64,000 nucleotides of DNA from NCBI RefSeq assembly GCF_013004105.1, contig NZ_CP053085.1:2976001-3040000 (forward strand), read 5' to 3'. This document shows, one piece after another, positions 41,452-54,632 of this stretch. Origin of the DNA: Gemmatimonas groenlandica (GTDB lineage: Bacteria; Gemmatimonadota; Gemmatimonadetes; Gemmatimonadales; Gemmatimonadaceae). A model generated the notes under the pieces. It was not told where the DNA came from. It was given only the letters and a program-made list of their open reading frames with translations, and did not search any database. The first letter of the stretch is position 1. Each line of letters opens with the position of its first letter. The translations under genes and the position numbers were made by a program.

Positions 41452-41733
41452 GATGCTCTTATGATGATCTATTAAGGGCGCTAAAACGCTCTCGCTTTTC
41501 AACGACCCACCTGAGCCGAGCTGAAGGTCGGCCGCGACCAGACTTGCGTATAATATGCGGTTCACCTCGCAAATCACGTCCGTATACCTTGCATAGATGA
41601 CTGAAAATCATATAGTTACCCCAGTTCTGGTGGACGTGGACCATACTATTGAGGCTTGAGCAGCACCTCCTCTGTAGAAAAGTCGGGCGACCACCTCTAC
41701 CTCCATTGCTGGCGGAAGGAGTCCGTTCGACCC

Positions 41734-42639
41734 ATGGCCGATTTGCCGCAGGCTGACGACGACACGATCACCGAAGGTGACGCACCTCCTGCCAGTCCGG
41801 CCCCGCGCCGTGGCCCTGGGCATCGGGCTGCAGACGCACGCGACACCGCGGCCGAGATGGCGCAGCGGGCGCACGAGATCAGCCTGGAGGCCGGCAGCAA
41901 GATGGCCGGGGCCATGCGCGAGGTGATCGGTGCGGCGGCGGGGTTCAGCCCCTTCGCGATCGAAAGCGCGCGCGACCTCATCAACTACATGGTCCGCCGC
42001 GGCCAGATGGGGCAGGAAGAGGCCGAGGTGCTGATTCAGCAGGCCGAAGCCGCCTATATCGCGAAGCACGGATCGCTGCCGATTCCCGGACCGAAGGCGC
42101 CGCCGCCGAAGCCGGTACCGCTGGGTCAGCTGCCAAAGGCCGTGACGGCGCCTGCCGCCGCGGCTGAAGCGGCGCTCGAGGCGCGGGCGGCCATGCGGAT
42201 CGAGCCCCAGAAGCCGTCCGACAAGGTCACCTTCGCGCCGCTTCCTCCGAAGCCGGCACCGAAGCCGCCGGCTCCGAAGGTCGAAGTCGTCGAAGCCCCG
42301 CTCGAGGCCAAGGTGGAAGCGAAGGTCGAGGCCAAGCCGGCCGCGAAGGCGCCGGCGGCCAAGGCGGCTCCAGCCGCTGCAGCCAAGACGGCCGCTCCGG
42401 CGGCGAAGGTGCCCGCGGCCGCCAAGGCAGCGACGCCTCCGGCGAAGGCGCCAGCCAAGGTCGCCGTTCCCGCCAAGGCGCCGGCAAAGGCACCCGCCAA
42501 GGCCCCGGCGAAAGCACCAGCGAAGGCCGCCGCTCCGGCGAAGGCCCCCGCAAAGGCACCAGCCAAGGCACCGGCGAAGGCTCCGGCCAAGCCGGCAGCC
42601 AAGGCTCCCGCCAAGAAGGCGCCGGCGAAGAAGAAGTAG
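41734..42639 (+). CDS. Phasin/histone-H1-like protein with KAPA repeats (PhaF-like)
   Basis: 301 aa. Residues about 30-115 form an amphipathic helical region (TAAEMAQRAHEISLEAGSKM, then SAFD-like FAIESARDLINYMVRRGQMG and EEAEVLIQQAEAAYIAKHG) like phasin-type granule-surface proteins. From about 190 to the end the protein is almost only Ala, Pro and Lys, with some 20 KAPA units and an end of KKAPAKKK, as in histone H1 and in the C-terminus of Pseudomonas PhaF. The combination suggests a DNA-binding, granule- or nucleoid-associated protein; function inferred. The GGAAGGAG at 41714-41721 supports the ATG at 41734 rather than an earlier start. No PHA synthase was seen nearby. Confidence 0.7.
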   Translation: MADLPQADDDTITEGDAPPASPAPRRGPGHRAADARDTAAEMAQRAHEISLEAGSKMAGAMREVIGAAAGFSPFAIESARDLINYMVRRGQMGQEEAEVLIQQAEAAYIAKHGSLPIPGPKAPPPKPVPLGQLPKAVTAPAAAAEAALEARAAMRIEPQKPSDKVTFAPLPPKPAPKPPAPKVEVVEAPLEAKVEAKVEAKPAAKAPAAKAAPAAAAKTAAPAAKVPAAAKAATPPAKAPAKVAVPAKAPAKAPAKAPAKAPAKAAAPAKAPAKAPAKAPAKAPAKPAAKAPAKKAPAKKK

Positions 42640-43603: not shown

Positions 43604-44767
43604 GTGACGTACCGATATCCGCTCGATCCCGTCGCGTTGACCGCATCGCTGGTCGCGATCGATTCGCGCAATCCATCACTCGTGCCCGACGGGCCGGGTG
43701 AGCTCGCGTGCGCGACGCATCTCGCGGCCGTGTTGAACGCGTGGGGATTCGCCGTGTCGCTGCAGGAGATTGCGCCCGGCCGCGCCAACGTGATCGCCCG
43801 CATCGGCCCCACCGGCCGCACACCGCTCGTGTTGAACGGACATCTCGATGTCGTCGGCGTGGAAGGCATGTCGCACGCACCGTTCGCGCCGGAGGTGCGT
43901 GACGGCAGCATGTTCGGGCGCGGCACCACCGACATGAAGGGTGGCGTAGCGGCGATGTGCGTGGCCGCCGCCCGCGCCGCGGCGCGTGGTTCGCTGGCCA
44001 GTGAGATCATCATCACGGCCGTGTGCGACGAAGAGTATGCGTCGATCGGCACTCGCGCGCTGCTCGAGCAAGGGCTTCGCGCCACCGGGGCGATCATCAC
44101 GGAGCCCACGCGCATGGCCATCGCGCCGGCACACAAGGGATTCGCGTGGATCGAAGTGGTGTTGCATGGACGCGCGGCGCACGGCAGTCGGTACGACGTG
44201 GGCATCGACGCGAACCGTCACGCCGGGCTGTTGCTCGCCGCGCTCGATCGGTACGAACAGGATGTGCTCATGACCCGCGTGCATCCACTACTGGGCCGTG
44301 CGTCACTGCATGCCTCGTCGATCGTCGGTGGCACGGGCTGGTCGACCTATGCCGAACGCTGCACGCTGCGTATCGAACGCCGCACGCTGCCCGGAGAGAG
44401 CGGCGAGCAGGCGCTCGCCGACATCCGCGCGCTCTGCGATGTGCTCACGGCCTCACGCCCGGGATTCCAAGCCGACGTTTCGCTGGTGTGCGCACAGCCC
44501 CCGCTCGATCTCGCGCTCGATGCCCCGTTGATCGCGTCCGTACGCGCCGCATGCACCGCTGGCGGAATCGAGCCCACGATGGCCGGGTTGTCGTGCTGGA
44601 CCGATGCGGCCCTGTTCGCCGAAGCGGGGATCCCGGCGCTGTGCTTCGGACCGGGCGATATTGCCCGCGCGCATTCCGACACGGAGTGGGTGGAGATTGC
44701 CGATCTCGAGCGGGCGACGGAGATCCTGGAAGCGGTCTGTGCGGGGTGGGGTCGCGAGAAGGCGTAG
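43604..44767 (+). CDS. M20-family metallopeptidase / ArgE-DapE-like deacylase
   Basis: 387-aa zinc amidohydrolase. Metal ligands are visible: His in LVLNGHLDVVG, bridging Asp in GRGTTDMKGGVAAM, the Glu pair in VCDEEYASIG, and a further ligand in the late SCWTDAALFAEAG/CFGPGD region. It belongs with acetylornithine deacetylase/succinyl-diaminopimelate desuccinylase and related peptidases; substrate is not resolvable. The start is a GTG 10 bases after the kinase stop, so the two are in one operon. It converges with the kdp operon end 25 bp away. Confidence 0.87.
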   Translation: MTYRYPLDPVALTASLVAIDSRNPSLVPDGPGELACATHLAAVLNAWGFAVSLQEIAPGRANVIARIGPTGRTPLVLNGHLDVVGVEGMSHAPFAPEVRDGSMFGRGTTDMKGGVAAMCVAAARAAARGSLASEIIITAVCDEEYASIGTRALLEQGLRATGAIITEPTRMAIAPAHKGFAWIEVVLHGRAAHGSRYDVGIDANRHAGLLLAALDRYEQDVLMTRVHPLLGRASLHASSIVGGTGWSTYAERCTLRIERRTLPGESGEQALADIRALCDVLTASRPGFQADVSLVCAQPPLDLALDAPLIASVRAACTAGGIEPTMAGLSCWTDAALFAEAGIPALCFGPGDIARAHSDTEWVEIADLERATEILEAVCAGWGREKA

Positions 44768-44791
44768 GCGATAAGGCGTAAACCGCCGCCG

Positions 44792-45709
44792 TCAGCCGAC
44801 TCGAATCTCGGCGGCGGCATTCGTCATGCTGAGGCTCCCGCCTTGCACTTCGAGCAGTCGACCCGCCAGCGCGGGCGTCGTGTCAGGGCGCGGGGACACC
44901 GAGATCAAGATGGTGCGCCCGTCGCGCGCGCTGGCAATGCGGAGTGGACGCTCGCTCGACACATGCTCTGCGGCGGATTCGAAGAAGAGCGCCAGCGCCT
45001 CAGCCAGACGCACGCGGTCGGCCGAGACGCGCGGCAACGCCGGTTCGAGTGACGACTCCACGCGTGCGCCGCGCCGTTCTGCCGCCACATGGGCGAGCGG
45101 CAGCACCGCGCGGATGACGTCGTTCACCTGCACGAGCTCGCGCACCACCGGCAGCGCACCGCGATCTGCGTCGGCAATCTTCCCGAGTCGTCGGAGTGCC
45201 TCGTCCATGGCGTCGGCCGCATCACGCGCGGCGCCCAGCAGCTCCTCCTGATTCTCGTTGAGGTCCCCGAACTTCGCCTCGAGCAGGATATGAAGCGGGA
45301 GGCGCACGTCGTCGAGCTGACCGAGCGTCGAGCGAACGGTTGCCGATAACAGCGTCGCGTGTTCGTGCAGCCGAAGTCCCGCCGCGTCCTGTGCCTTTGC
45401 ACTTTCGGCTTTCGACACGGAGAGCGCACTCCCCAGCTGATCGACGACTTGTTCGATGCGGTCCAATTCGTCGGGGGTATCGCGCGTGCCGGCCGCACTG
45501 GGCCCGGCCAGTCGCGTGATGCGGCGCGCGAGATAGCGCGTGTTCAACCACGTGACGACGAGCGACGCGATCGCCAGAATCGAGGCGCCGACGACGACGA
45601 GTTCGGGCGCGGTACGTGCATACTGTCCGTAGTACGCGAGCCCGAGCGCCAGCGCGACGGCGAGCAGCGACGGGACCAGCGCGAGAAAGAGGCGCTGCCC
45701 GACGGTCAT
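44792..45709 (-). CDS. Degenerate sensor-kinase-like membrane protein, last gene of kdp operon
   Basis: 305 aa. Two N-terminal hydrophobic segments (about 7-27 and 36-56), a HAMP-like basic stretch, a coiled coil (RIEQVVDQLGSALSVSKAES) and a helical-hairpin domain. At the place of the kinase H-box, SHELRTPL, this protein has LDDVRLPL: the phospho-accepting His is Asp133. No N, G1 or G2 ATP-binding boxes are recognisable in the C-terminal half. So it looks like the dimerisation part of a kinase without catalytic competence. It overlaps the KdpD-like gene by four bases (ATGA) and occupies the place of the missing KdpD C-terminal half. Confidence 0.72.
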   Translation of the reverse strand: MTVGQRLFLALVPSLLAVALALGLAYYGQYARTAPELVVVGASILAIASLVVTWLNTRYLARRITRLAGPSAAGTRDTPDELDRIEQVVDQLGSALSVSKAESAKAQDAAGLRLHEHATLLSATVRSTLGQLDDVRLPLHILLEAKFGDLNENQEELLGAARDAADAMDEALRRLGKIADADRGALPVVRELVQVNDVIRAVLPLAHVAAERRGARVESSLEPALPRVSADRVRLAEALALFFESAAEHVSSERPLRIASARDGRTILISVSPRPDTTPALAGRLLEVQGGSLSMTNAAAEIRVG

Positions 45710-46887
45710 GGAAGGTCAGCTCGCGACAGCAGTGTCGCCTCGGCCTCGTCGAACAACGACACCACCAGCACATCCAGCCCTTCGCGTCCGGCGATCAACC
45801 GATCGACGACCGATCCGTGGCGTAACCGATGCCAGCGCGAGCGCGTCGATTGACCGATGATCACCAGTGTCACGCCACGCTCACGGGCAAAGCGCACCAG
45901 TGTCGCCGCCACGTCGGTGCCTTCCAGTTTCACGACTTCGGCACCCATCGACTGGGCGAGCTGAATGTTGTCGACCAGCCGTCGCTGCACGGTCGCGTCG
46001 ATACGATCGGCGCGTTCATCGGGCGTCTGCACGTACACGCAATACCAGTCAGAGTTGAGCCGGCCGGCGATGCGGCTCGCTTTCCGAAGCAGCACGCGGG
46101 ACAACGGCGGATTGCTCGAGAGGCAGACCAGCAGTCGATCGACGGTGCGCGGGGCCAGGCCGGCGCCACCCGGCCCGTCTTCGCGACGGATCAATCCTTC
46201 GCGCGCGCGATCCACCGAGTTCGCCGTTTCGCGCAAGGCCAGCTCGCGCAGCGTACTCAGATTCTCGTCGGTGAAGAAGTTGGTCAGTGCCGCTTCGATT
46301 TTTTCGGCGCGATAGATCTTGCCTTCGCGCAAACGCTGACGAAGGTCCTCCGATGAAATATCGAGATTAACCACCTGATCGGCCTGGGCGACGACCCAGT
46401 CGGGGACCGTCTCGCGCACCAGCACCCCAAGCTCGCGCTGCATCACGTCGTTGAGAGACTCGAGGTGCTGCACGTTGACGGCGGAGACGACATTGATGCC
46501 CTCGTCGAGCAAGTACAACACGTCCTGCCACCGCTTCCCATTGCGTGAACCGGGCACGTTGGTGTGCGCCAGCTCGTCGACGATCGTGATCTGCGGACGT
46601 CGCGCGACGAGGGCGTCGACGTCCATCTCTTCGAGCGAGACGCCTCGGTACTCGATGCGTCGGCGCGGGAGCACCTCGAGGTCACGGAGCTGCGCCTCCG
46701 TATCGGCGCGTGCATGTGTTTCCACGAAGCCGACGACGATGTCCACGCCGCGCCGACGCATGTCGTACGCTTCCTGCAGCATCTTGTAGCTCTTGCCCAC
46801 CCCGGCCGAGGACCCGATGTAGAGCTTGAGCTTCCCACGCTCGCGCTGACGCACGAGCTCGAGGAAGCTCGCCTCGGGCGCTTCCAT
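45706..46887 (-). CDS. kdpD: KdpD N-terminal sensor half (KdpD plus USP domain), no kinase
   Basis: 393 aa, against about 900 for full KdpD. It has the N-terminal KdpD domain with Walker A GSSAGVGKS (residues 25-33), VVGFVETHARADTEAQL, the VDELAHTNVPGSRNGKRWQD block and NVQHLESLND, followed by a universal-stress-protein-like domain (LLVCLSSNPPLSRVLLRKASRIA, ending VVIIGQSTRSRWHRL-like GQS turn). The four-helix membrane part, GAF and histidine kinase are absent. Such short KdpD forms exist in other bacteria and are thought to sense K+ or c-di-AMP through the USP domain. It is coupled to the porin gene upstream by TGATG and overlaps the kinase-like gene downstream. Confidence 0.92.
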   Translation of the reverse strand: MEAPEASFLELVRQRERGKLKLYIGSSAGVGKSYKMLQEAYDMRRRGVDIVVGFVETHARADTEAQLRDLEVLPRRRIEYRGVSLEEMDVDALVARRPQITIVDELAHTNVPGSRNGKRWQDVLYLLDEGINVVSAVNVQHLESLNDVMQRELGVLVRETVPDWVVAQADQVVNLDISSEDLRQRLREGKIYRAEKIEAALTNFFTDENLSTLRELALRETANSVDRAREGLIRREDGPGGAGLAPRTVDRLLVCLSSNPPLSRVLLRKASRIAGRLNSDWYCVYVQTPDERADRIDATVQRRLVDNIQLAQSMGAEVVKLEGTDVAATLVRFARERGVTLVIIGQSTRSRWHRLRHGSVVDRLIAGREGLDVLVVSLFDEAEATLLSRADLP

Positions 46888-48083
46888 CAGAAGGTCAGCG
46901 CGAGCGACGACACGACGAATCCGCTGCGCTTCGACGGCGTCTCGTTGCGGCCATCCGGGAAAATGGCGTCGCGGTTCTGCCAGCCACGGACTTCCGAGCG
47001 CCACAGAAAGCGCGCTTGCGGCTGCACGTCGACGCCGACGGACGCGCCGACGGCGCGGAACGGTGCATTCGCGATCGCGGTCGCTCCGCTGCCGCGTGTG
47101 CCGGTTGCGAGAACAACCTGGTCCGGATCGCGCATGTATTCAACGCGACCTGAGAGCGCAATCGTCGGCGCGACCTGGCGTCGTACAATCGCCGCGGTGT
47201 TGATCCAACTGGAGGTACCGGCGGCGCCTGCCGGACGGGACTGCGTTCCGTAATCCGCTTCACCGAGCAACGTCCATCCGCCAGCCGTCGCGAGCTTCGC
47301 ACCGACTCCATTGAAGCTCCGCACGCGCGAGCCAGCCTCGCTGGAGATGAAATTGTAATAGCTCAGCGTGGACGTCGGCGTGACGGCGTAGTCGAGTCGA
47401 ATCCCCGCGCCCTTTCCACTGTTGTTCTCCGAAATATTCTGCCACCCGTTCACGATGTCGAGCCGGGCCGTGAGCTTGGGGGTTGCCGCCCACGTCGCCT
47501 TGACGCCCGTCGAGTAGTACGGCGAGTAATCGCCGACCAGCGAGCGTGTGTAGGTCGGATTGTCGCGCGAGACCCAGCCTTCCATGCCCATGTTGGAGTA
47601 GAAGATGCCGCCGTCGATCCACACGTGGTCGGCGATCTTGTATCCGACCACGGCTTCCTGGATGTGCCGTGCGAGCGATGGGCCACTGATGGTTCCGTTC
47701 ACCGGCTCGCCGGCATAGTTCGACTGGACCGACGTGCCGGCCTGAAGGGCGAAGCGACCACGTACCCGTGCTCCGGCGAGCACGGCTTCCACGTAGGCCA
47801 GGTTGATGTTGAACTCATTGTGCCGCGACGGCTGCGTGGTAAACGGCGCACCACCGGCGAAGGAGCGGTCGAATGACGCCGGGCGACCGGCATCGTAGGC
47901 GAAGTAGCCGTCGACGAACGCGCCGTAGGTGACGCGAACGGTGGTATCAGCCGGCGCGGGTTGCGCGACGGCGGGTTGCGCGGCGGCGCGGCGCGGCAGC
48001 GCGGCGAGCGCAAGGGCGGCGACCGTGGCGCAAGCGATTGAGCGCGCGTGGTGCCACGGATGGCGATTCGGATATGCGATCAT
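46887..48083 (-). CDS. Outer-membrane beta-barrel porin within the kdp operon
   Basis: 398 aa with a signal peptide (ATVAALALAALPRRAAAQ), an acidic/Pro-Ala spacer, and a repeat of amphipathic beta strands beginning VTYGAFVDGYFAYDAGRPA and ending in Phe (SSLALTF), which is the C-terminal signal of outer-membrane proteins. It resembles the BBP2/OmpL-like porin family (FNINLAYVEAVLAGARVRGRF, DGGIFYSNMGMEGW). It lies between kdpC and kdpD, overlapping kdpC by four bases (ATGA) and kdpD by one, so it must be co-expressed with the K+ pump. A K+-permeable porin feeding the pump is a reasonable inference. Confidence 0.87.
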   Translation of the reverse strand: MIAYPNRHPWHHARSIACATVAALALAALPRRAAAQPAVAQPAPADTTVRVTYGAFVDGYFAYDAGRPASFDRSFAGGAPFTTQPSRHNEFNINLAYVEAVLAGARVRGRFALQAGTSVQSNYAGEPVNGTISGPSLARHIQEAVVGYKIADHVWIDGGIFYSNMGMEGWVSRDNPTYTRSLVGDYSPYYSTGVKATWAATPKLTARLDIVNGWQNISENNSGKGAGIRLDYAVTPTSTLSYYNFISSEAGSRVRSFNGVGAKLATAGGWTLLGEADYGTQSRPAGAAGTSSWINTAAIVRRQVAPTIALSGRVEYMRDPDQVVLATGTRGSGATAIANAPFRAVGASVGVDVQPQARFLWRSEVRGWQNRDAIFPDGRNETPSKRSGFVVSSLALTF

Positions 48084-48709
48084 GGAAGAGTCCGGGGGAG
48101 AGTTGGCACCAGCGCCGTCTTGGCCGGGCGTATCGTCAGCGCAGAATCGAGCGCGATGTTCAGCAGGAGCACGTTCACGCGAGGCTCGCCCAGCACGCCG
48201 AACTGTCGGCCTTCCGTACGCGCGTCCAGCAACTTCTGCACATCGGCGGCGGACACGCCGCGGGCGCGCGCCACCCGCGCGACCTGCAGCCGCGCGTTGG
48301 CTGGCGAAATGTGCGGATCGAGCCCCGAGGCGCTGGCCGTCACCATGTCCGACGGAACCTGGCCCTTGATGGCCCCGTCGAGCTGCACCGCGCTATCGAC
48401 GCGCAGCGCGATCAGCGTGTCGGCGAGCTTGCGGTCGGTCGGACCCTTGTTCGTACCGGCCGACGCCGTCGCGTCATAGCCGGCACCCGCGGCTGAGGGC
48501 CGCGGATGGAAGTACTCAGGACGCGTGAACGACTGGCCGATGAGCTCCGAGCCCACGATACGACCGTTCACGCGAACCAGCGAGCCATTGGCCTGACGCG
48601 GAAAGATGAGCTGCGCGAGCCCGGTCACGAGGCCGGGGTATCCGATCCCCGTAATGACACACAGCAACACGGTCAGCACGAGGGCGGGGCGAATATTCGA
48701 GCGAATCAT
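48080..48709 (-). CDS. kdpC: K+-transporting ATPase subunit C
   Basis: 209-aa subunit of the KdpFABC pump. It starts MIRSNIRPALVLTVLLCVITGIGYP with one membrane helix, and has the family blocks LIFPRQANGSLV, GSELIGQSFTRPEYFHPRPSAAG and DMVTASASGLDPHISPANA. Subunit C stabilises the complex and supports ATP binding. The ATG at 48709 is 10 bp after the kdpB stop. Confidence 0.97.
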   Translation of the reverse strand: MIRSNIRPALVLTVLLCVITGIGYPGLVTGLAQLIFPRQANGSLVRVNGRIVGSELIGQSFTRPEYFHPRPSAAGAGYDATASAGTNKGPTDRKLADTLIALRVDSAVQLDGAIKGQVPSDMVTASASGLDPHISPANARLQVARVARARGVSAADVQKLLDARTEGRQFGVLGEPRVNVLLLNIALDSALTIRPAKTALVPTLPRTLP

Positions 48710-48719
48710 GAGAGCACCC

Positions 48720-50816
48720 TCAGACGAGACGAAGGAGGACGAGCAGCACGTCGATGGCCTTGATCCCGACGAACGGCACGATAAGTCCACCCACTCCGTA
48801 CACCAGCAGATTTCGACGGAGAATGGCGCCGGCTGCCGCCGGACGGTACTTGACGCCGCGGAGCGCCAGCGGGATCAACGCGACGATGATGAGCGCGTTG
48901 AAGATCACCGACGCCAGGATCGCACTCTCCGGCGAGTGCAAGCGCATGACGTTCAGGGGCTGTAACGCGCCGCGGACGCCGTACACCGAGATGAAGATTG
49001 CGGGAATGATCGCGAAGTACTTGGCGACGTCGTTGGCAATCGAAAACGTGGTGAGCGAGCCGCGGGTCATGAGCAGTTGCTTCCCGATCTCCACAATCTC
49101 GATGAGCTTCGTGGGATTGGAGTCGAGGTCGATCATGTTGCCGGCTTCCTTGGCCGCCTGCGTACCGGAGTTCATGGCGACGCCGACGTCTGCCTGCGCG
49201 AGCGCGGGCGCGTCGTTGGTGCCGTCGCCAGTCATCGCGACGAGTTTGCCCCCCGCCTGCTCGCGCTTGATCAGCGCCATCTTGTCTTCGGGCTTCGCCT
49301 CGGCCAGGAAGTCGTCGACGCCCGCTTCCTGTGCGATGGCCGCCGCCGTCAGGGGATTGTCGCCCGTGATCATCACCGTACGAATGCCCATCGCCCGCAA
49401 GCGGTCGAATCGCTCCTTCATGCCGCCCTTCACGACATCCTTGAGATAGATGACGCCGAGGATTCGCGCGATCCCATTGTCGCGCTCGGCCACGACGAGC
49501 GGCGTACCACCCTCACGCGCGACACGCTGAATCGTGGGCTCCAGATCGGCGGGTACCGTGCCGCCATGTTCACGCGTCCACCGGATCACCGCGTCGCCGG
49601 CGCCCTTCCGCGTTTCGCGCCCATCGAGATTCACGCCGCTCATGCGCGTGCTGGCACTGAATGGCACGAACTCCATGGCGGCGGAGGTCGCGTCGCCGCC
49701 GACCTCGCGTCCACGTAAACCATACTGCGATTTGGCGAGGACGACGATGCTTCGGCCTTCGGGCGTTTCGTCGGCCAACGACGCGAGCTGCGCGCGATCG
49801 GCAAGATCTGCGACGGCGGTGCCACCGACCGCTACGAACTCCGAGGCCTGCCGATTGCCCAGCGTGATTGTCCCGGTCTTGTCGAGCAAGAGCGTATTTA
49901 CGTCACCGGCCGCTTCGACGGCGCGTCCACTCATCGCGATAACGTTCTGCTGAATCATACGATCCATGCCCGCGATGCCGATCGCCGACAGCAGGCCGCC
50001 GATCGTGGTCGGAATGAGGCACACCAGGAGCGCGATGAGCACCGTGATCGCGACCGGGCTTCCGGCGTAGATCGCGAACGGCTGGAGCGTGGCAACGGCG
50101 AGCACGAAGATGATCGTGAGACCCGACAGCAGGATGGTCAACGCGATTTCGTTCGGCGTTTTCTGTCGGCTGGCTCCCTCGACGAGCGCAATCATCCGGT
50201 CGATGAAGGTCTCGCCGGGATTGGCGGTGATCCGTACCACGATGAAGTCGGACAGCACCTTCGTACCGCCGGTGATGGCCGAACGGTCACCGCCGCTCTC
50301 GCGAATCACGGGAGCGCTCTCGCCCGTGATGGCACTCTCGTCGACCGACGCCACGCCTTCCACGACTTCACCGTCACCGGGAATGACGTCGCCCGGCACG
50401 CACACAACGAGATCCCCGCGGCGGAGCGTTGCCGCCGACACGTTCTCGAACTCAGCCACATTGTAGGCGCGCTCGGTGCCGGACGCGTCGAGCTTCTTGG
50501 CGCTGATCTGCGTGCGGCTCTCGCGCAGCGTGTCTGCCTGCGCCTTGCCTCGCCCCTCAGCCATCGCTTCGGCGAAATTGGCGAACAGGACGGTGAACCA
50601 CAGCCACAGCGTCAACTGGAGCGTGAACGCGATGCCATCGCGTCCGGCGGCGATATCCCGCGCCAGGGCGGCGGTGGTATAGGCGGAGCCGAGCAGCACC
50701 ACGAACATCACGGGATTCCGCACCATGTGCTTCGGATTCAACTTCACGAACGCATCGCGCACTGCCCGCCGAACGATCGGTGGGTCGAAGAGCGGACGGG
50801 ATTGTGTGCTGACCAT
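48720..50816 (-). CDS. kdpB: K+-transporting P-type ATPase subunit B
   Basis: 698-aa catalytic subunit of the Kdp pump. The phosphorylated Asp is 312 in [12 protein letters not shown], the actuator TGES is at 164-167, and the hinge [18 protein letters not shown] is intact, so the ATPase should be active. Ser167 of TGES is the residue equal to E. coli Ser162, whose phosphorylation switches the pump off. The start overlaps the kdpA stop by one base (TAATG). Confidence 0.98.
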
Positions 50817-52540
50817 TAGAAGAGCCCTCCCGATCCCATCGAGAAGTGCTCGACGATCGGCCCGAGCGCGAGCGCCGGAAAGAAGGTGAGCGCACCAACG
50901 ACAATGACGACGCCGATGAGAAGCGCCGAGAAGACCGGTCCTTCGACCGGGAACGTCCCGGCCGACGCAGGGGCGCTCTTCTTCTCCGCCAGAAACCCGG
51001 CCAGCGCCAGCAACGGGACGATCAAGGCGAAGCGGCCCACGAGCATGGCCACGCCGAACTGCGTGTTGTACCAGTAGGTCGATCCGGTCAAACCAGCGAA
51101 CGCGGATCCATTATTCGCCGTCGTGGACGTGAACGCGTAGAGCAGCTCCGAAAGCCCGTGCGGGCCGCTGTTGTTGAGCCCTTGCAGTCCGGATGGCGAG
51201 ACGGCGGAGATCGCCGTGAACACCAGGATCGACGCCGCGGATGCGAGCACGTAGAGCATCGCCATCTGTACTTCACGCGCCTGCAGCTTCTTGCCGAGAT
51301 ACTCCGGGGTGCGCCCCACCATCAGTCCTGCGATGAAGACCGTGAGCACGATGAAGATGATCATGCCATAGAGGCCAGCCCCCACCCCGCCGAAAATCAC
51401 TTCGCCCAGCTGCATGTTCACCATCGTCACCATCCCGGCGAGCGGCGTGAAAGAGTCATGCATGGCGTTCACCGCGCCGCACGACGCGTCGGTGGTCACG
51501 ACGGAATACAGTGCCGAATTCGCAATGCCGAAGCGCGTCTCTTTCCCTTCCATGTTGCCGCCGGGATTCACGGCGGTGGTGGCGACGTCGAGGCCACGTG
51601 CGGCGTGCGTCGGGTTCCCGCGCGCTTCGGCCGAGTAGGTCACCCCGGTGCCGGCCAGGAAGAGCAGGAACATCGCGGACCAGACCGACCAGCCATGTCG
51701 CGTGTTGCCGACCATGCGACCAAGTAGGTAGACCAACGCCGATGGAATGGCGAAGATCGCAAAGACCGACAGGAAGTTGGACCACGGCGTGGGATTCTCG
51801 AACGGGTGCGCCGAGTTGGCATTGAAGAAGCCGCCGCCGTTCGTCCCGATCTGCTTGATCGCCTCCTGACTGCCGACGGGGCCCATCGCGATCGTCTGCG
51901 TGGCGCCTTCGAGCGTCGTGACCTGCAGATACGGATGGAAGTTCTGAATCACGCCCTGCTGCACCATCGCCAGCGCCCAGATCAGCGAGAGCGGAATCAG
52001 GACGTAGAGCGTGCCGCGCGTGAGATCGACCCAGAAGTTTCCGATGCGTCCGCGCCCGTCGCCGGACCGGCGTGCAATGCCTCGCACCAGGGCAACGGCG
52101 ACGGCCATGCCGACCGCCGCCGACACGAAGTTGTGGAACGTGAGCTGAGACATCTGCGAGAAGTACGACATCGTCGACTCGCCGCCGTAGCTCTGCCAGT
52201 TCGTGTTGGTCGTGAAGGACGCCGCGGTCTCGAAGGCCTGCCGGTCGGGCAGCGCACCGAGGTCCTGCGGGTTCATCGGCAACAGATGTTGCACGCGCAG
52301 CGCGACGTACGTCAGCAGCATCGATGCCGCGCTGAAGAGCAGCATGGCGCCCGCGTAGCGCGTCCAGTGCTGATCGTCATCAGCGTTGACGCCGGCGACG
52401 CGGTAGATGACGCGCTCGATAGGGCGGAGCCAACGAACGGATCCGTCGTAGACGTGGACGAGGTAGAGTCCCAGTGGCTTCGCGATGGCAAGAATCGCGA
52501 GACTGAAGACGATGATCTGGAACCAGCCGTCGAAGGTCAT
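50816..52540 (-). CDS. kdpA: K+-transporting ATPase subunit A (channel-like)
   Basis: 574-aa K+-selective subunit of the Kdp pump with about ten membrane helices. Seen: [15 protein letters not shown] at the N-terminus, [20 protein letters not shown] (first selectivity loop), [32 protein letters not shown] and a late [17 protein letters not shown] loop, all standard. It follows kdpF by 7 bp. Confidence 0.98.
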
Positions 52541-52547
52541 GGATGGC

Positions 52548-52637
52548 TCAGAATTTTTCGGGACGGATAAGCGTGTATGTCAGATAGACAAGCACGGCCA
52601 CAGCCATCACCGAGGCGATGGCACTTTCGGCGCTCAT
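52548..52637 (-). CDS. kdpF: K+-transporting ATPase small subunit F
   Basis: 29-aa single-helix peptide: MSAESAIASVMAVAVLVYL, then TYTLIRPEKF. The ending RPEKF and the position directly before kdpA are diagnostic of KdpF, the lipid-like stabiliser of the KdpFABC complex. Its ATG overlaps the stop of the 50-codon ORF upstream by four bases (ATGA), and its stop (complement 52548-52550) is 7 bp before the kdpA start. Confidence 0.93.
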   Translation of the reverse strand: MSAESAIASVMAVAVLVYLTYTLIRPEKF

Positions 52638-52786
52638 GCGACACGCTCGCGGCCAAGGGTATCGTCGGCAGGCGCGCGCTCCGCACCGTCAGCGTTGGAC
52701 GAGCCCAACCCTTCGCACACCCGGACGTAAGCGAGCATCAGCGCGAAGAACGCGACGGTACCGAGCACATAGGCGAGATCGATCAC
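52634..52786 (-). CDS. Small membrane protein, first gene of the kdp operon
   Basis: 50-aa product from a GTG (complement 52784-52786) with a strong AGGAGGT Shine-Dalgarno 6-7 bases upstream. One membrane helix (IDLAYVLGTVAFFALMLAYV), then a short polar tail with Cys24. The ATGA overlap with kdpF shows that it is translated together with the pump. Similar short membrane peptides precede kdpF in other genomes and are usually left unannotated; the function is unknown, possibly an extra small pump subunit. Confidence 0.82.
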   Translation of the reverse strand: MIDLAYVLGTVAFFALMLAYVRVCEGLGSSNADGAERAPADDTLGRERVA

Positions 52787-52938
52787 GGGACAACCTCCTC
52801 ATGCGGGTTGCGCTCCAGATCCGGGGACCTCCCGAGACCATGACAGCTTCGCAACTGAGGGGAAGCGTACCGCGAGGCCCGTAAAGGCCGCGCAAAGATC
52901 GGGCGTCTGGCGCACAAAGAAATCGTGTAGTTTTCGGG

Positions 52939-53154
52939 ATGCAGCTCTCCGTTCTCCAATACGACAAACTCGAGCGCGCCATCACGGATGGCACTCGTCT
53001 CCAGCTCTATCGTCGCGGCACCGAATTTCTCGTGATCCCTGAGCGGCTCCGTCTACACAACGGGCGTGAGCTGATCGTCGCCCGTCATCCGAGTACGGGT
53101 AGCTTGCTCGAGATCTATATCGACGAGCTGGACGGCATGGAGATCGTGAAGTGA
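52939..53154 (+). CDS. Small conserved-looking protein, unknown
   Basis: 71 aa, mostly beta by appearance (MQLSVLQYDKLERAI, TRLQLYRRGTEFLVIP, then EIYIDELDGMEIV). No known motif. It overlaps the RNase H-like gene by four bases (GTGA). The 152-bp gap on its left is shared with the divergent kdp operon. Confidence 0.7.
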   Translation: MQLSVLQYDKLERAITDGTRLQLYRRGTEFLVIPERLRLHNGRELIVARHPSTGSLLEIYIDELDGMEIVK

Positions 53155-53789
53155 GCGCGAAGTATCCGCTGGTGGCGGTGTTTGCCGACGAATCCTGCCT
53201 TGGCAACGGCAAGATTGGTGATACTCCCGGCGGACTCGGCGCGCTGATCGAATTCCGAAAGGCCGACGGCACCGTGCAGCGATTCGACCTGTGGGCCTCG
53301 GAACCCGACACCACGAACAACCGGATGGCGCTGCGATCGGTGATCGACAGCTACCAGGCGATGTCGCGGAAGGGTAACCCGCTGTCGGTCCTGTTCACGA
53401 CCGACTCCCGCTACATCGTGGACGGGATGACGTCGTGGGTGCGGGGATGGATGGCGCGGGGCTGGAAACGGGCGCAGGGACCCGTGGAGAACGTGGAGCT
53501 CTGGCAGGCGGCAGTGGAGGCCGTGGCCATGCACGAGACGCAATGGGCGTGGGTGAAAGGGCACGCCGGCCATCCTCAGAACGAATACGCCAATCATCTG
53601 GCGACCCGGGCGGCCGCCGTGCAGGACCGCTCGGATGGACTCGTCGTGTCGTCGTTCGAGGAGTGGTGGGCCGCGCAGCCGGTCCGGGCCAACACCAAGC
53701 GGGCCCCACTGTCACCATTTCCTGCGCCGGACGCCTTCGCACCGGCTCCCGCGTTACCCGGGGCCAAGACTGCGCGTCGGATGACGTAA
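53151..53789 (+). CDS. RNase HI-like protein lacking two catalytic carboxylates
   Basis: 212 aa with a full RNase HI fold (residues 6-157) and a Pro/Ala-rich tail. The match to E. coli RnhA is strong over SCLGNG, TTNNRM, TTDSRYIVDGM, W-x2-GW-x2-A and WVKGHAGHPQNE. However, of the DEDD active site, Asp10 and Asp70 are present (Asp13 and Asp85) and His124 is present (His138), but Glu48 is Ala60 (RMAL for RMEL) and Asp134 is Asn148. Normal cleavage of RNA:DNA hybrids is therefore doubtful; it may bind hybrids without cutting, or the true acid may lie elsewhere. The GTG start overlaps the small gene upstream. Confidence 0.85.
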   Translation: MSAKYPLVAVFADESCLGNGKIGDTPGGLGALIEFRKADGTVQRFDLWASEPDTTNNRMALRSVIDSYQAMSRKGNPLSVLFTTDSRYIVDGMTSWVRGWMARGWKRAQGPVENVELWQAAVEAVAMHETQWAWVKGHAGHPQNEYANHLATRAAAVQDRSDGLVVSSFEEWWAAQPVRANTKRAPLSPFPAPDAFAPAPALPGAKTARRMT

Positions 53790-53823
53790 GGACTCCGGCG
53801 CACGAGTGCCGGTCCAACTCCGG

Positions 53824-54009
53824 ATGCTCATGTTCAAGTATCTATTCATCCTCGCGATCGGCGTCGCCATCGGCTACGGCTACGGCTGGAAAGACGCGCA
53901 AGAGAACGACAAGAACGTCGCCGAGCGAGTCGTGGATCGCATCGGTGGCGAGACGCGTGAGCGCATGGGAAACGACGTGGACAAGCGTATGGCAGCCGAA
54001 GGGAAGTGA
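53824..54009 (+). CDS. Small membrane-anchored protein, unknown
   Basis: 61 aa from ATG 53824 (ATG 53830 and GTG 53806 are alternatives). A single N-terminal helix, KYLFILAIGVAIGYGYGW, carries a GYGYG glycine/tyrosine pattern, followed by a charged helix (ENDKNVAERVVDRIG) that could form a coiled coil in the cytoplasm or periplasm. It overlaps the zinc-ribbon gene by four bases (GTGA). Confidence 0.65.
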   Translation: MLMFKYLFILAIGVAIGYGYGWKDAQENDKNVAERVVDRIGGETRERMGNDVDKRMAAEGK

Positions 54010-54632
54010 GCGTCGTGTCACGCTCGCTGGACGATCTCGATCGTCTTGCCTTCCGGCTCTCGCGTACGGTTCGGACGCAGTATCCGCATCTCCTGACGCA
54101 GGGCTTCACGCTCACTGATCTCGAGGAACGGCTCCTGCCCTTCCGTGAGGCGCGTCGTGAAATGGCCGACGGTGGCGCCGACGCCTTCGAGCGGGCGGTG
54201 CTCCGCCTCATCGCCGGGGAGCGCGGCTATCTCCAGACCGAGTCGGGACTGCAAGCGGCCTGTACGCAGGCCCTCGCCTCACCCTCACCCTCGATGTCGT
54301 TGGTGCGCGCGTGGGCGACGACCTCGCTGACGCTGGCCCAACAGGCGACCACGGTCGGCACGGAGCGGATGGCGACGCCGCCCGCCACCGACATCAGCGA
54401 TCGGTCGGGTGAGTCGAAGCCGGAAACCAAGCCCTGCGGCTGTCGCTTCTGCGGCAACCGACTGCCCGAGAACCGCCGCATGACGTTCTGCCCGCATTGC
54501 GGCATGGACCTCACCAAGCGGCAGTGCCCCGCCTGCAGCACCGAGCTCGACGTGAACTGGCGCTTTTGCGTGACCTGCGGTCGCAGCGCCGACCTGCCGG
54601 ATATCGCGATACCGATCCGTCGCGCCAGCTAG
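54006..54632 (+). CDS. Double zinc-ribbon protein
   Basis: 208 aa. The N-terminal 75 residues are helical (SLDDLDRLAFRLSRTVRTQY, LTDLEERLLPFREARREM). The C-terminal part has two treble-clef-like zinc ribbons: CGCRFCGNRLPENRRMTFC-PHC and CPAC-x13-CVTC. Such double ribbons occur in bacterial proteins of unknown role, often as protein- or nucleic-acid-binding modules. It is the last of four overlapping genes. The GTG start is fixed by the GTGA overlap. Confidence 0.77.
   Translation: MSVVSRSLDDLDRLAFRLSRTVRTQYPHLLTQGFTLTDLEERLLPFREARREMADGGADAFERAVLRLIAGERGYLQTESGLQAACTQALASPSPSMSLVRAWATTSLTLAQQATTVGTERMATPPATDISDRSGESKPETKPCGCRFCGNRLPENRRMTFCPHCGMDLTKRQCPACSTELDVNWRFCVTCGRSADLPDIAIPIRRAS

What the first reader, a model, noticed from the sequence alone, without database searches (positions are those of the whole stretch)
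44792..46887. Split and disarmed KdpD: a sensor half and a kinase-like protein without the His
The operon carries the KdpD N-terminal plus USP half, and then a separate membrane protein whose H-box reads LDDVRLPL, with Asp133 in place of the phospho-acceptor, and no ATP-binding boxes. The two genes overlap. This may be a K+ (or c-di-AMP) sensor that works without phosphorylation, for example by direct contact with the pump or a regulator.
Basis: partly seen in the sequence, partly recalled or inferred. Interest (0 to 1): 0.55.

Follow-up and report, generated by a model that had tools for sequence, protein, structure and literature searches.

The report
Dead histidine kinase beside KdpD serine kinase
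Next to a bacterial potassium pump sits a short KdpD that keeps the parts needed to switch the pump off by serine phosphorylation, followed by a former histidine kinase that has lost its catalytic site but is conserved across many Gemmatimonadota, probably as a regulatory partner.

Summary
The observation largely stands. 45706-46887 (-) is KdpD N-domain plus USP; 44792-45709 (-), overlapping by 4 nt, is a two-TM protein with a histidine-kinase-like DHp-CA core, no acceptor His, no G1 box and no ATP lid. One detail is wrong: in profile alignment the acceptor His maps to Arg126. Asp133 lies one heptad later; no His occurs at either position in 54 distinct homologues. The interpretation needs revision. 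The KdpD half is not disarmed: it keeps the residues of the KdpD atypical serine kinase, and KdpB keeps the TGES target, so phosphorylation-based pump inhibition is likely. The 305-aa protein is not KdpD's missing C-terminal half: an intact DUF4118-GAF-HisKA-HATPase kinase with a KdpE-like regulator lies elsewhere in this genome beside a Kup transporter, and near kdp in most relatives. The pseudo-kinase is a conserved Gemmatimonadota family: 32 of 298 genomes, all 32 directly downstream of a short KdpD, none with full-length KdpD, fused to KdpD in one lineage, dN/dS 0.06-0.28. Its catalytic region varies freely while its DHp hairpin is nearly invariant, as expected for a docking scaffold. Best reading: a non-catalytic regulatory partner of the KdpD serine kinase. 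Partner surface and signal are untested.

The parts
44792..45709 (-). Pseudo-histidine kinase, 305 aa: TM1 (res 3-30), TM2 (36-68), long helix 81-144 including DHp alpha1, alpha2 152-183, lid-less CA domain 191-304
   Evidence: Model pLDDT 87.7; Foldseek and VIA-align to HK cores; profile to DivL 4.7e-14; no Pfam match
45332..45334 (-). Codon 126 (Arg): position aligned with the phospho-acceptor His of intact kinases
   Evidence: Gapless profile-profile alignment; column has no His in 54 homologues
45311..45313 (-).
45233..45313 (-). Conserved DHp block, residues 133-159: lower alpha1, hairpin, start of alpha2
   Evidence: F147, G148, L150, N153, Q154 and E156 identical in 54 of 54; hairpin (146-156) mean entropy 0.50 bits against 2.44 around the acceptor site
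45706..46887 (-). [quoted passage not shown] start coupled to porin stop (TGATG)
   Evidence: PF02702 and Usp; 46 % identity to E. coli KdpD over 383 columns; start read
46887..48083 (-). BBP2/OmpL-like porin within the operon
   Evidence: PF07642 4.9e-65
48080..48790 (-). kdpC (ORF listing start; true start probably further downstream)
   Evidence: PF02669 3.5e-71
48720..50816 (-). kdpB, with ITGESAP motif containing the serine equivalent to E. coli Ser162
   Evidence: TIGR01497 1062 bits; 65 % identity to E. coli KdpB, TGES aligned
50816..52540 (-). kdpA
   Evidence: PF03814 1.4e-237
52548..52637 (-). kdpF, 29 aa
   Evidence: Read from sequence by eye and translated

Best explanation
The two genes form a regulatory pair that acts on the pump. 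[quoted passage not shown] coli and Deinococcus proteins; inferred here from conserved residues). The second protein is a repurposed HAMP/PAS-type histidine kinase. It keeps a membrane anchor and the DHp-CA scaffold (presumably dimeric) but has lost the acceptor His, the G1 box and the ATP lid, so it should not phosphorylate anything. I propose that it docks through its conserved DHp hairpin module and acts as a regulatory subunit of the serine kinase, most likely by binding the KdpD USP/kinase chain and so passing a membrane or regulator signal to it. Transcription of kdp would be left to an intact DUF4118 kinase/KdpE-like pair encoded elsewhere. Shown by computation: loss of the catalytic residues, conservation pattern, linkage, fusion, purifying selection. 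Inferred: the partner, the direction of control and the signal.
For: Serine kinase: Walker A Lys, Ser/Thr, D109, E110 and R190 kept in 29 of 29 pseudo-kinase-linked KdpDs aligned (of 32; 3 not in the tree), W39 replaced by Tyr/Phe, Tyr also in 5 of 7 Deinococcota and 3 of 3 cyanobacterial short KdpDs; KdpB TGES kept. Partnership: 32 of 298 phylum genomes carry the pseudo-kinase (E<=1e-44), all 32 among the 45 with KdpD, directly downstream on the same strand (coordinates); 0 of 10 genomes with full-length KdpD has it; natural KdpD-USP-pseudokinase fusion in two genomes of one lineage (the two 95 % identical). KdpD tree: the label needs two changes, fitting one gain in a 30-row clade and one loss (G019). 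Selection: dN/dS 0.06-0.28 in 8 of 8 pairs. Docking module conserved while the catalytic region drifts. USP/kinase-domain identity ratio stays high in pseudo-kinase-linked KdpDs even without a diadenylate cyclase (0.855, 66 pairs), but is 0.615 (15 pairs) in full-length KdpDs without one.
Against: No binding or activity data. G019, in the same genus, has the short KdpD without the pseudo-kinase, so it is dispensable. The conserved block overlaps what DivL uses for a response regulator, so the partner may be a regulator instead. Seven genomes lack the two-TM N-terminus (0-1 TM), so a membrane signal cannot be universal. The USP constraint argument rests on few, non-independent pairs, and G001 x G208, without pseudo-kinase, is also 0.866 (1 pair).
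Confidence: 0.45

Rival explanations
1. DivL-like reader: the pseudo-kinase docks a phosphorylated response regulator (such as the KdpE-like one) on its conserved DHp module and either sequesters it or relays its state to KdpD or to the intact kinase.
For: Best PDB profile match is DivL, a Tyr pseudo-kinase that reads DivK~P (passages of PMC4211667). The conserved block 133-165 corresponds to the part described there as RR docking module. A DUF4118 kinase domain lies within 25 kb of KdpD on the same contig in 26 of 32 pseudo-kinase genomes; regulators read beside it in most of the maps inspected.
Against: DivL's H+3 Arg is not conserved here (position 129: S14 A9 T6 V5 L5 R4 and others in 54). 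The family does not resemble the DUF4118 kinases, whose profile scores are 8-17 bits. In the window genome the kinase/regulator pair is about 1.87 Mb away.
Confidence: 0.25
2. Membrane tether and dimer scaffold: the protein only anchors and dimerises KdpD near KdpFABC.
For: Two TM helices with a very short loop, then a long helix; 25 of 32 keep the two-TM length (counting G118, scored 1 TM by threshold).
Against: Seven genomes have lost the two-TM N-terminus while keeping DHp-CA, including the fusion; a bare tether would not need a retained CA fold or an invariant hairpin.
Confidence: 0.15
3. Decaying relic of a kdp-locus HAMP histidine kinase without function.
For: Catalytic motifs lost; closest intact relative by profile is the kinase in the kdp locus of G001 (96.7 bits; next 77.7), whose KdpD belongs to the sister group of the pseudo-kinase clade; gene absent in G019.
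Against: dN/dS 0.06-0.28, near-invariant hairpin, retention over many genera.
Confidence: 0.05
4. c-di-AMP alone controls the short KdpD, as in Deinococcus geothermalis; the pseudo-kinase has a separate, minor role.
For: A diadenylate cyclase is encoded in the window genome; precedent PMC11018627.
Against: 14 of 32 pseudo-kinase genomes have no detectable cyclase; of the Firmicutes c-di-AMP motif only the Cys/Ala, first Ser and Tyr positions can be matched by eye in the window USP.
Confidence: 0.1

Closest known systems
Short KdpD/Usp atypical serine kinase (Deinococcus geothermalis KdpD; NCBIfam NF038185 'KdpD-like non-kinase potassium sensor')
   Same: Same two domains, same position after the pump genes, same Walker A/B residues and KdpB TGES target
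   Different: NF038185 score 399.6 is under its cut-off of 550; followed by a pseudo-histidine kinase, which was not annotated next to KdpD in the Deinococcota and cyanobacterial stretches inspected
DivL, pseudo-histidine kinase of Caulobacter
   Same: DHp-CA fold without acceptor His; top PDB profile hit; conserved lower DHp
   Different: Arg, not Tyr, at the acceptor position; no PAS domains; ATP lid and G1 box absent; linked to a K+ pump; RR binding untested
E. coli KdpD C-terminal half (TM-GAF-DHp-CA; DUF4118 kinases)
   Same: Both are kinase-like membrane proteins linked to kdp
   Different: No DUF4118 or GAF; BLASTP with E. coli KdpD has no significant match; DUF4118 kinases score 8-17 bits on its profile
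HAMP/PAS histidine kinase of the kdp locus in G001 and G208
   Same: Best intact relative by profile is the G001 one (96.7 bits), in a kdp locus with a short KdpD
   Different: Those kinases keep His, ATP lid, HAMP and PAS-type domains; the G208 one scores only 63.7 bits
RetS/GacS kinase pair
   Same: Kinase core that regulates another kinase by direct contact (recalled; title of 7n0e); structural match 7n0e Z 16.6, rmsd 2.9 over 183 residues
   Different: RetS acts on a histidine kinase (recalled); no heterodimer shown here

Membership tests
Short KdpD/Usp atypical serine kinase | KdpD sensor domain and USP, no TM/GAF/DHp-CA on the chain | tested here: met
Short KdpD/Usp atypical serine kinase | Walker A Lys, Walker B D109/E110 and R190 | tested here: met
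Short KdpD/Usp atypical serine kinase | Tryptophan 39 of the adenine pair | tested here: not met
   Tyr in the window; Tyr/Phe in 29 of 29 relatives; Tyr in 8 of 10 Deinococcota and cyanobacterial short KdpDs, so probably not strictly defining
Short KdpD/Usp atypical serine kinase | Target serine in KdpB TGES | tested here: met
Short KdpD/Usp atypical serine kinase | NCBIfam NF038185 score over the curated cut-off | tested here: not met
   399.6 against 550 bits; this bars filing under NF038185, not the serine-kinase reading
Short KdpD/Usp atypical serine kinase | Stimulation by c-di-AMP | not testable with these tools
   Needs assay; cyclase gene present; Firmicutes motif only partly matched
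Histidine kinase (HisKA/HATPase_c), 305-aa protein | Phospho-acceptor His | tested here: not met
   Arg126; 0 His in 54 at 126 or 133
Histidine kinase (HisKA/HATPase_c), 305-aa protein | G1 box and ATP lid | tested here: not met
   27-column gap in place of G1/lid; no lid helix in the model
Histidine kinase (HisKA/HATPase_c), 305-aa protein | DHp hairpin plus CA alpha/beta fold | tested here: met
   (predicted structure)
KdpD C-terminal half | DUF4118 TM domain and KdpD-type DHp | tested here: not met
DivL-type pseudo-kinase | Tyr at the acceptor position and PAS domains | tested here: not met
   Arg126; no PAS match
DivL-type pseudo-kinase | Binds a phosphorylated response regulator | not testable with these tools
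   Only conservation of the lower DHp

The most novel reading that the evidence does not exclude
A histidine kinase was converted into a dedicated, non-catalytic regulatory subunit of an atypical serine kinase: its former regulator-docking module now grips the KdpD USP (or relays regulator state to it), so that pump inhibition can be controlled without c-di-AMP in lineages that lack the cyclase. This would be a direct link from the two-component fold to serine phosphorylation of a transporter.
Probability: 0.33. Interest if true: 0.72.

Novelty: new variant of a known kind. Interest (0 to 1): 0.5.

Why it matters
Short KdpDs lack the known K+-sensing domains, and how they are controlled where c-di-AMP is absent is open. 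A conserved, linked, once-fused pseudo-kinase is a concrete candidate for the missing input, and the pair is small enough to test with purified proteins. It also adds a family of pseudo-histidine kinases whose docking surface is under stronger constraint than its dead catalytic region.

Tried and rejected
Intact HisKA/HATPase in the 305-aa protein: rejected. Asp133 as acceptor replacement: rejected on register. KdpD C-half: rejected. c-di-AMP riboswitch or other RNA in 44000-54500: no Rfam match at E<=0.1. The Firmicutes c-di-AMP motif as a test: inconclusive; Deinococcus radiodurans KdpD lacks the first Ser as well, so the motif is a poor yardstick outside Firmicutes. USP constraint as proof of pseudo-kinase binding: weakened, because full-length KdpDs with a cyclase reach the same ratio (0.871, 6 pairs), as do G001 x G208 (0.866, 1 pair) and three cyanobacterial sequences (0.829, 3 pairs); Deinococcota 0.754 (21 pairs). 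TM loss versus cyclase: all 7 genomes without the two-TM N-terminus have a cyclase, against 11 of the other 25, but these are about three lineages, so only a hint.

Limits and dropped rows. The entropy comparison with intact kinases uses 13 diverse sequences (3 of 16 dropped because the H-box pattern did not match) and is not a matched control. The tree of KdpD used 44 rows; G254 gave no row and G168 and G291 were not entered. One search used 28 pseudo-kinase-linked KdpDs of 32. A fold of the natural fusion was considered; the mixed alignment misplaced the pseudo-kinase rows, so no job was sent. The scan of genome contigs depended on two short peptide patterns, so distant members outside the phylum could be missed; 36 of 38 titles name Gemmatimonadota, one a 'Gammaproteobacteria' MAG and one an unnamed bacterium, both possibly mis-binned. 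Paper searches for KdpD with Gemmatimon (3 papers, listing only), KdpD with pseudokinase, KdpD serine phosphorylation since 2024 and pseudo-histidine kinases listed no description of this pair; only those searches back that statement.

Full report
WHAT IS THERE. On the minus strand the window holds kdpF (52548-52637), kdpA, kdpB, kdpC, a BBP2-type porin, a short KdpD (45706-46887) and a 305-aa protein (44792-45709), in that order. The KdpD start is coupled to the porin stop (TGATG), and the KdpD stop overlaps the next start (ATGA). KdpD has the PF02702 sensor domain and a Usp domain and nothing after them. The window genome has one KdpD.

THE KdpD HALF IS NOT DISARMED. In E. coli the N-terminal KdpD domain is an atypical serine kinase that phosphorylates KdpB Ser162 and inhibits the pump; Walker A, Walker B D109 and E110, and the W39/R190 pair are needed, and a short KdpD/Usp protein from Deinococcus geothermalis does the same under c-di-AMP control (PMC11018627; I read the abstract, two results sections and the first part of the discussion). 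The window protein is 46 % identical to E. coli KdpD over this stretch and keeps the Walker A Lys, D, E and Arg; W39 is Tyr. In 29 of 29 pseudo-kinase-linked KdpDs aligned the four are kept and W39 is Tyr or Phe; Tyr is also found in 5 of 7 Deinococcota and 3 of 3 cyanobacterial short KdpDs. KdpB keeps ITGESAP. A diadenylate cyclase is encoded in the window genome.

THE 305-AA PROTEIN IS A DEGENERATE HISTIDINE KINASE. AlphaFold2 on 25 homologues gave mean pLDDT 87.7: two TM helices, a long helix to 144, a return helix 152-183 and an alpha/beta domain. Foldseek and VIA-align match it to histidine kinase cores (GacS, CpxA, ZraS, RetS, DivL, HK853; Z about 14-17). A profile search of PDB sequences puts the pseudo-kinase DivL first (4.7e-14). 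Profile-profile alignment with 13 intact kinases from the phylum (99.9 %) runs without a gap through the DHp domain and shows a 27-column gap where the G1 box and ATP lid should be. The first and last aligned residues agree roughly with 126-127 (inference from range ends and recalled His positions only). Across 54 distinct homologues position 126 holds T11 G11 R9 S6 A6 D5 M2 E2 L1 Q1 and position 133 holds D29 E13 A5 Q4 T1 K1 R1: no His in either (residue numbers printed are one lower because the first Met was removed).

CONSERVATION IS INVERTED. Mean column entropy is 2.44 bits around the lost acceptor (124-132), 1.06 for 133-145 and 0.50 for the hairpin 146-156; in the 13 intact kinases it is 0.81, 1.73 and 1.84. 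F147, G148, L150, N153, Q154 and E156 are identical in 54 of 54. The intact set is small and diverse, so the within-family contrast is the safer statement. In DivL the corresponding lower part of the DHp is described as the response-regulator docking module (PMC4211667, passages). dN/dS is 0.06-0.28 in 8 of 8 close pairs, so the gene is not a relic.

DISTRIBUTION. Of 298 phylum genomes, 32 carry a strong match (E<=1e-44; the next is 5e-28); 45 carry KdpD. All 32 lie within the 45, with the KdpD domain directly upstream on the same strand (coordinates). Of the other 13, ten have full-length KdpD (one, G043, cut by a contig end) and three a short KdpD without the pseudo-kinase (G001, G208, G019). 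Among 38 loci from the named-genome collection, 32 show a KdpD motif directly upstream or in the same frame; the other six are L131, L133, L135 and L137, cut near the contig end, L136, which appears to correspond to the frame-broken KdpD of G168, and L141, where the motif pattern missed. L156 and L160 carry a single frame with KdpD, USP and the pseudo DHp-CA; they are 95 % identical, so one fusion event seen in two genomes. In a KdpD tree the full-length proteins form one group (98/89) and the pseudo-kinase label needs two changes, consistent with one gain at the base of a 30-row clade (100/97) and a loss in G019; G001 and G208 are sister to that clade as drawn, with a midpoint root.

IT IS NOT THE OTHER HALF OF KdpD. 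KdpD-type DUF4118 kinases from these loci score 8-17 bits against the family profile, HAMP/PAS-type kinases 63-97, the highest being the kinase in the kdp locus of G001, beside a sigma-54-type regulator. In the window genome an intact DUF4118-GAF-HisKA-HATPase kinase and an OmpR-type regulator sit beside a Kup potassium transporter about 1.87 Mb away; full-length matches to the kinases beside kdp in relatives are 44-49 % identical (shorter matches up to 57 %), and the regulators 49-69 %. A DUF4118 domain lies on the same contig within 25 kb of KdpD in 26 of the 32 pseudo-kinase genomes; of the other six, five are on short or cut contigs and one is the window genome.

WHO IS THE PARTNER? Strict linkage and fusion point to KdpD. 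A further hint: at similar kinase-domain identity the USP domain is well conserved among pseudo-kinase-linked KdpDs, also where no cyclase is found (USP/kinase ratio 0.855, 66 pairs, 12 genomes), whereas full-length KdpDs without a cyclase have 0.615 (15 pairs, 6 genomes) and with a cyclase 0.871 (6 pairs, 4 genomes). This fits a second ligand or partner on the USP, but pairs are not independent and other short KdpDs without the pseudo-kinase also reach 0.75-0.87. 18 of 32 pseudo-kinase genomes have a cyclase. Seven lack the two-TM N-terminus, all of them with a cyclase; about three lineages, so only a lead.

VERDICT. Ordinary in one half (a short KdpD serine kinase), unusual in the other: a conserved, kdp-linked pseudo-histidine kinase family, apparently confined to Gemmatimonadota within the limits of the pattern-based scan, with a dead catalytic centre and a constrained docking hairpin. 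The most likely role is a non-catalytic regulatory partner of the serine kinase; the partner surface and signal remain to be tested.

Noticed in passing
L094:11096-12757 (G001): A KdpD-USP protein fused at its C-terminus to a PTS EIIA type 2 domain (PF00359, 3.9e-17), in a kdp locus with a sigma-54 type regulator; from memory, EIIA-Ntr regulates KdpD in E. coli, so this may be a natural fusion of regulator and target.
   Followed up: partly
L107:3913-8344 (window genome C1 about 4.888-4.892 Mb): KdpE-like regulator divergent from an intact DUF4118 kinase, followed by a Kup potassium transporter: the kdp-type two-component pair appears to sit next to another K+ transporter in this genome.
   Followed up: partly
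46887-48083: A BBP2/OmpL-like beta-barrel porin gene sits between kdpC and kdpD; a gene of similar size occupies this place in several relatives.
   Followed up: no
52634-52786 (-): Possible 50-aa membrane peptide (GTG start) directly upstream of kdpF, overlapping it by ATGA (read by eye).
   Followed up: no
41656-42639 (+): Protein with a long Lys/Ala/Pro repeat tail, resembling AlgP/histone-like proteins (name recalled).
   Followed up: no
(32 pseudo-kinase genomes): All seven pseudo-kinases without the two-TM N-terminus come from genomes with a diadenylate cyclase, while 14 of the 25 others lack one; about three lineages, so only a hint.
   Followed up: partly
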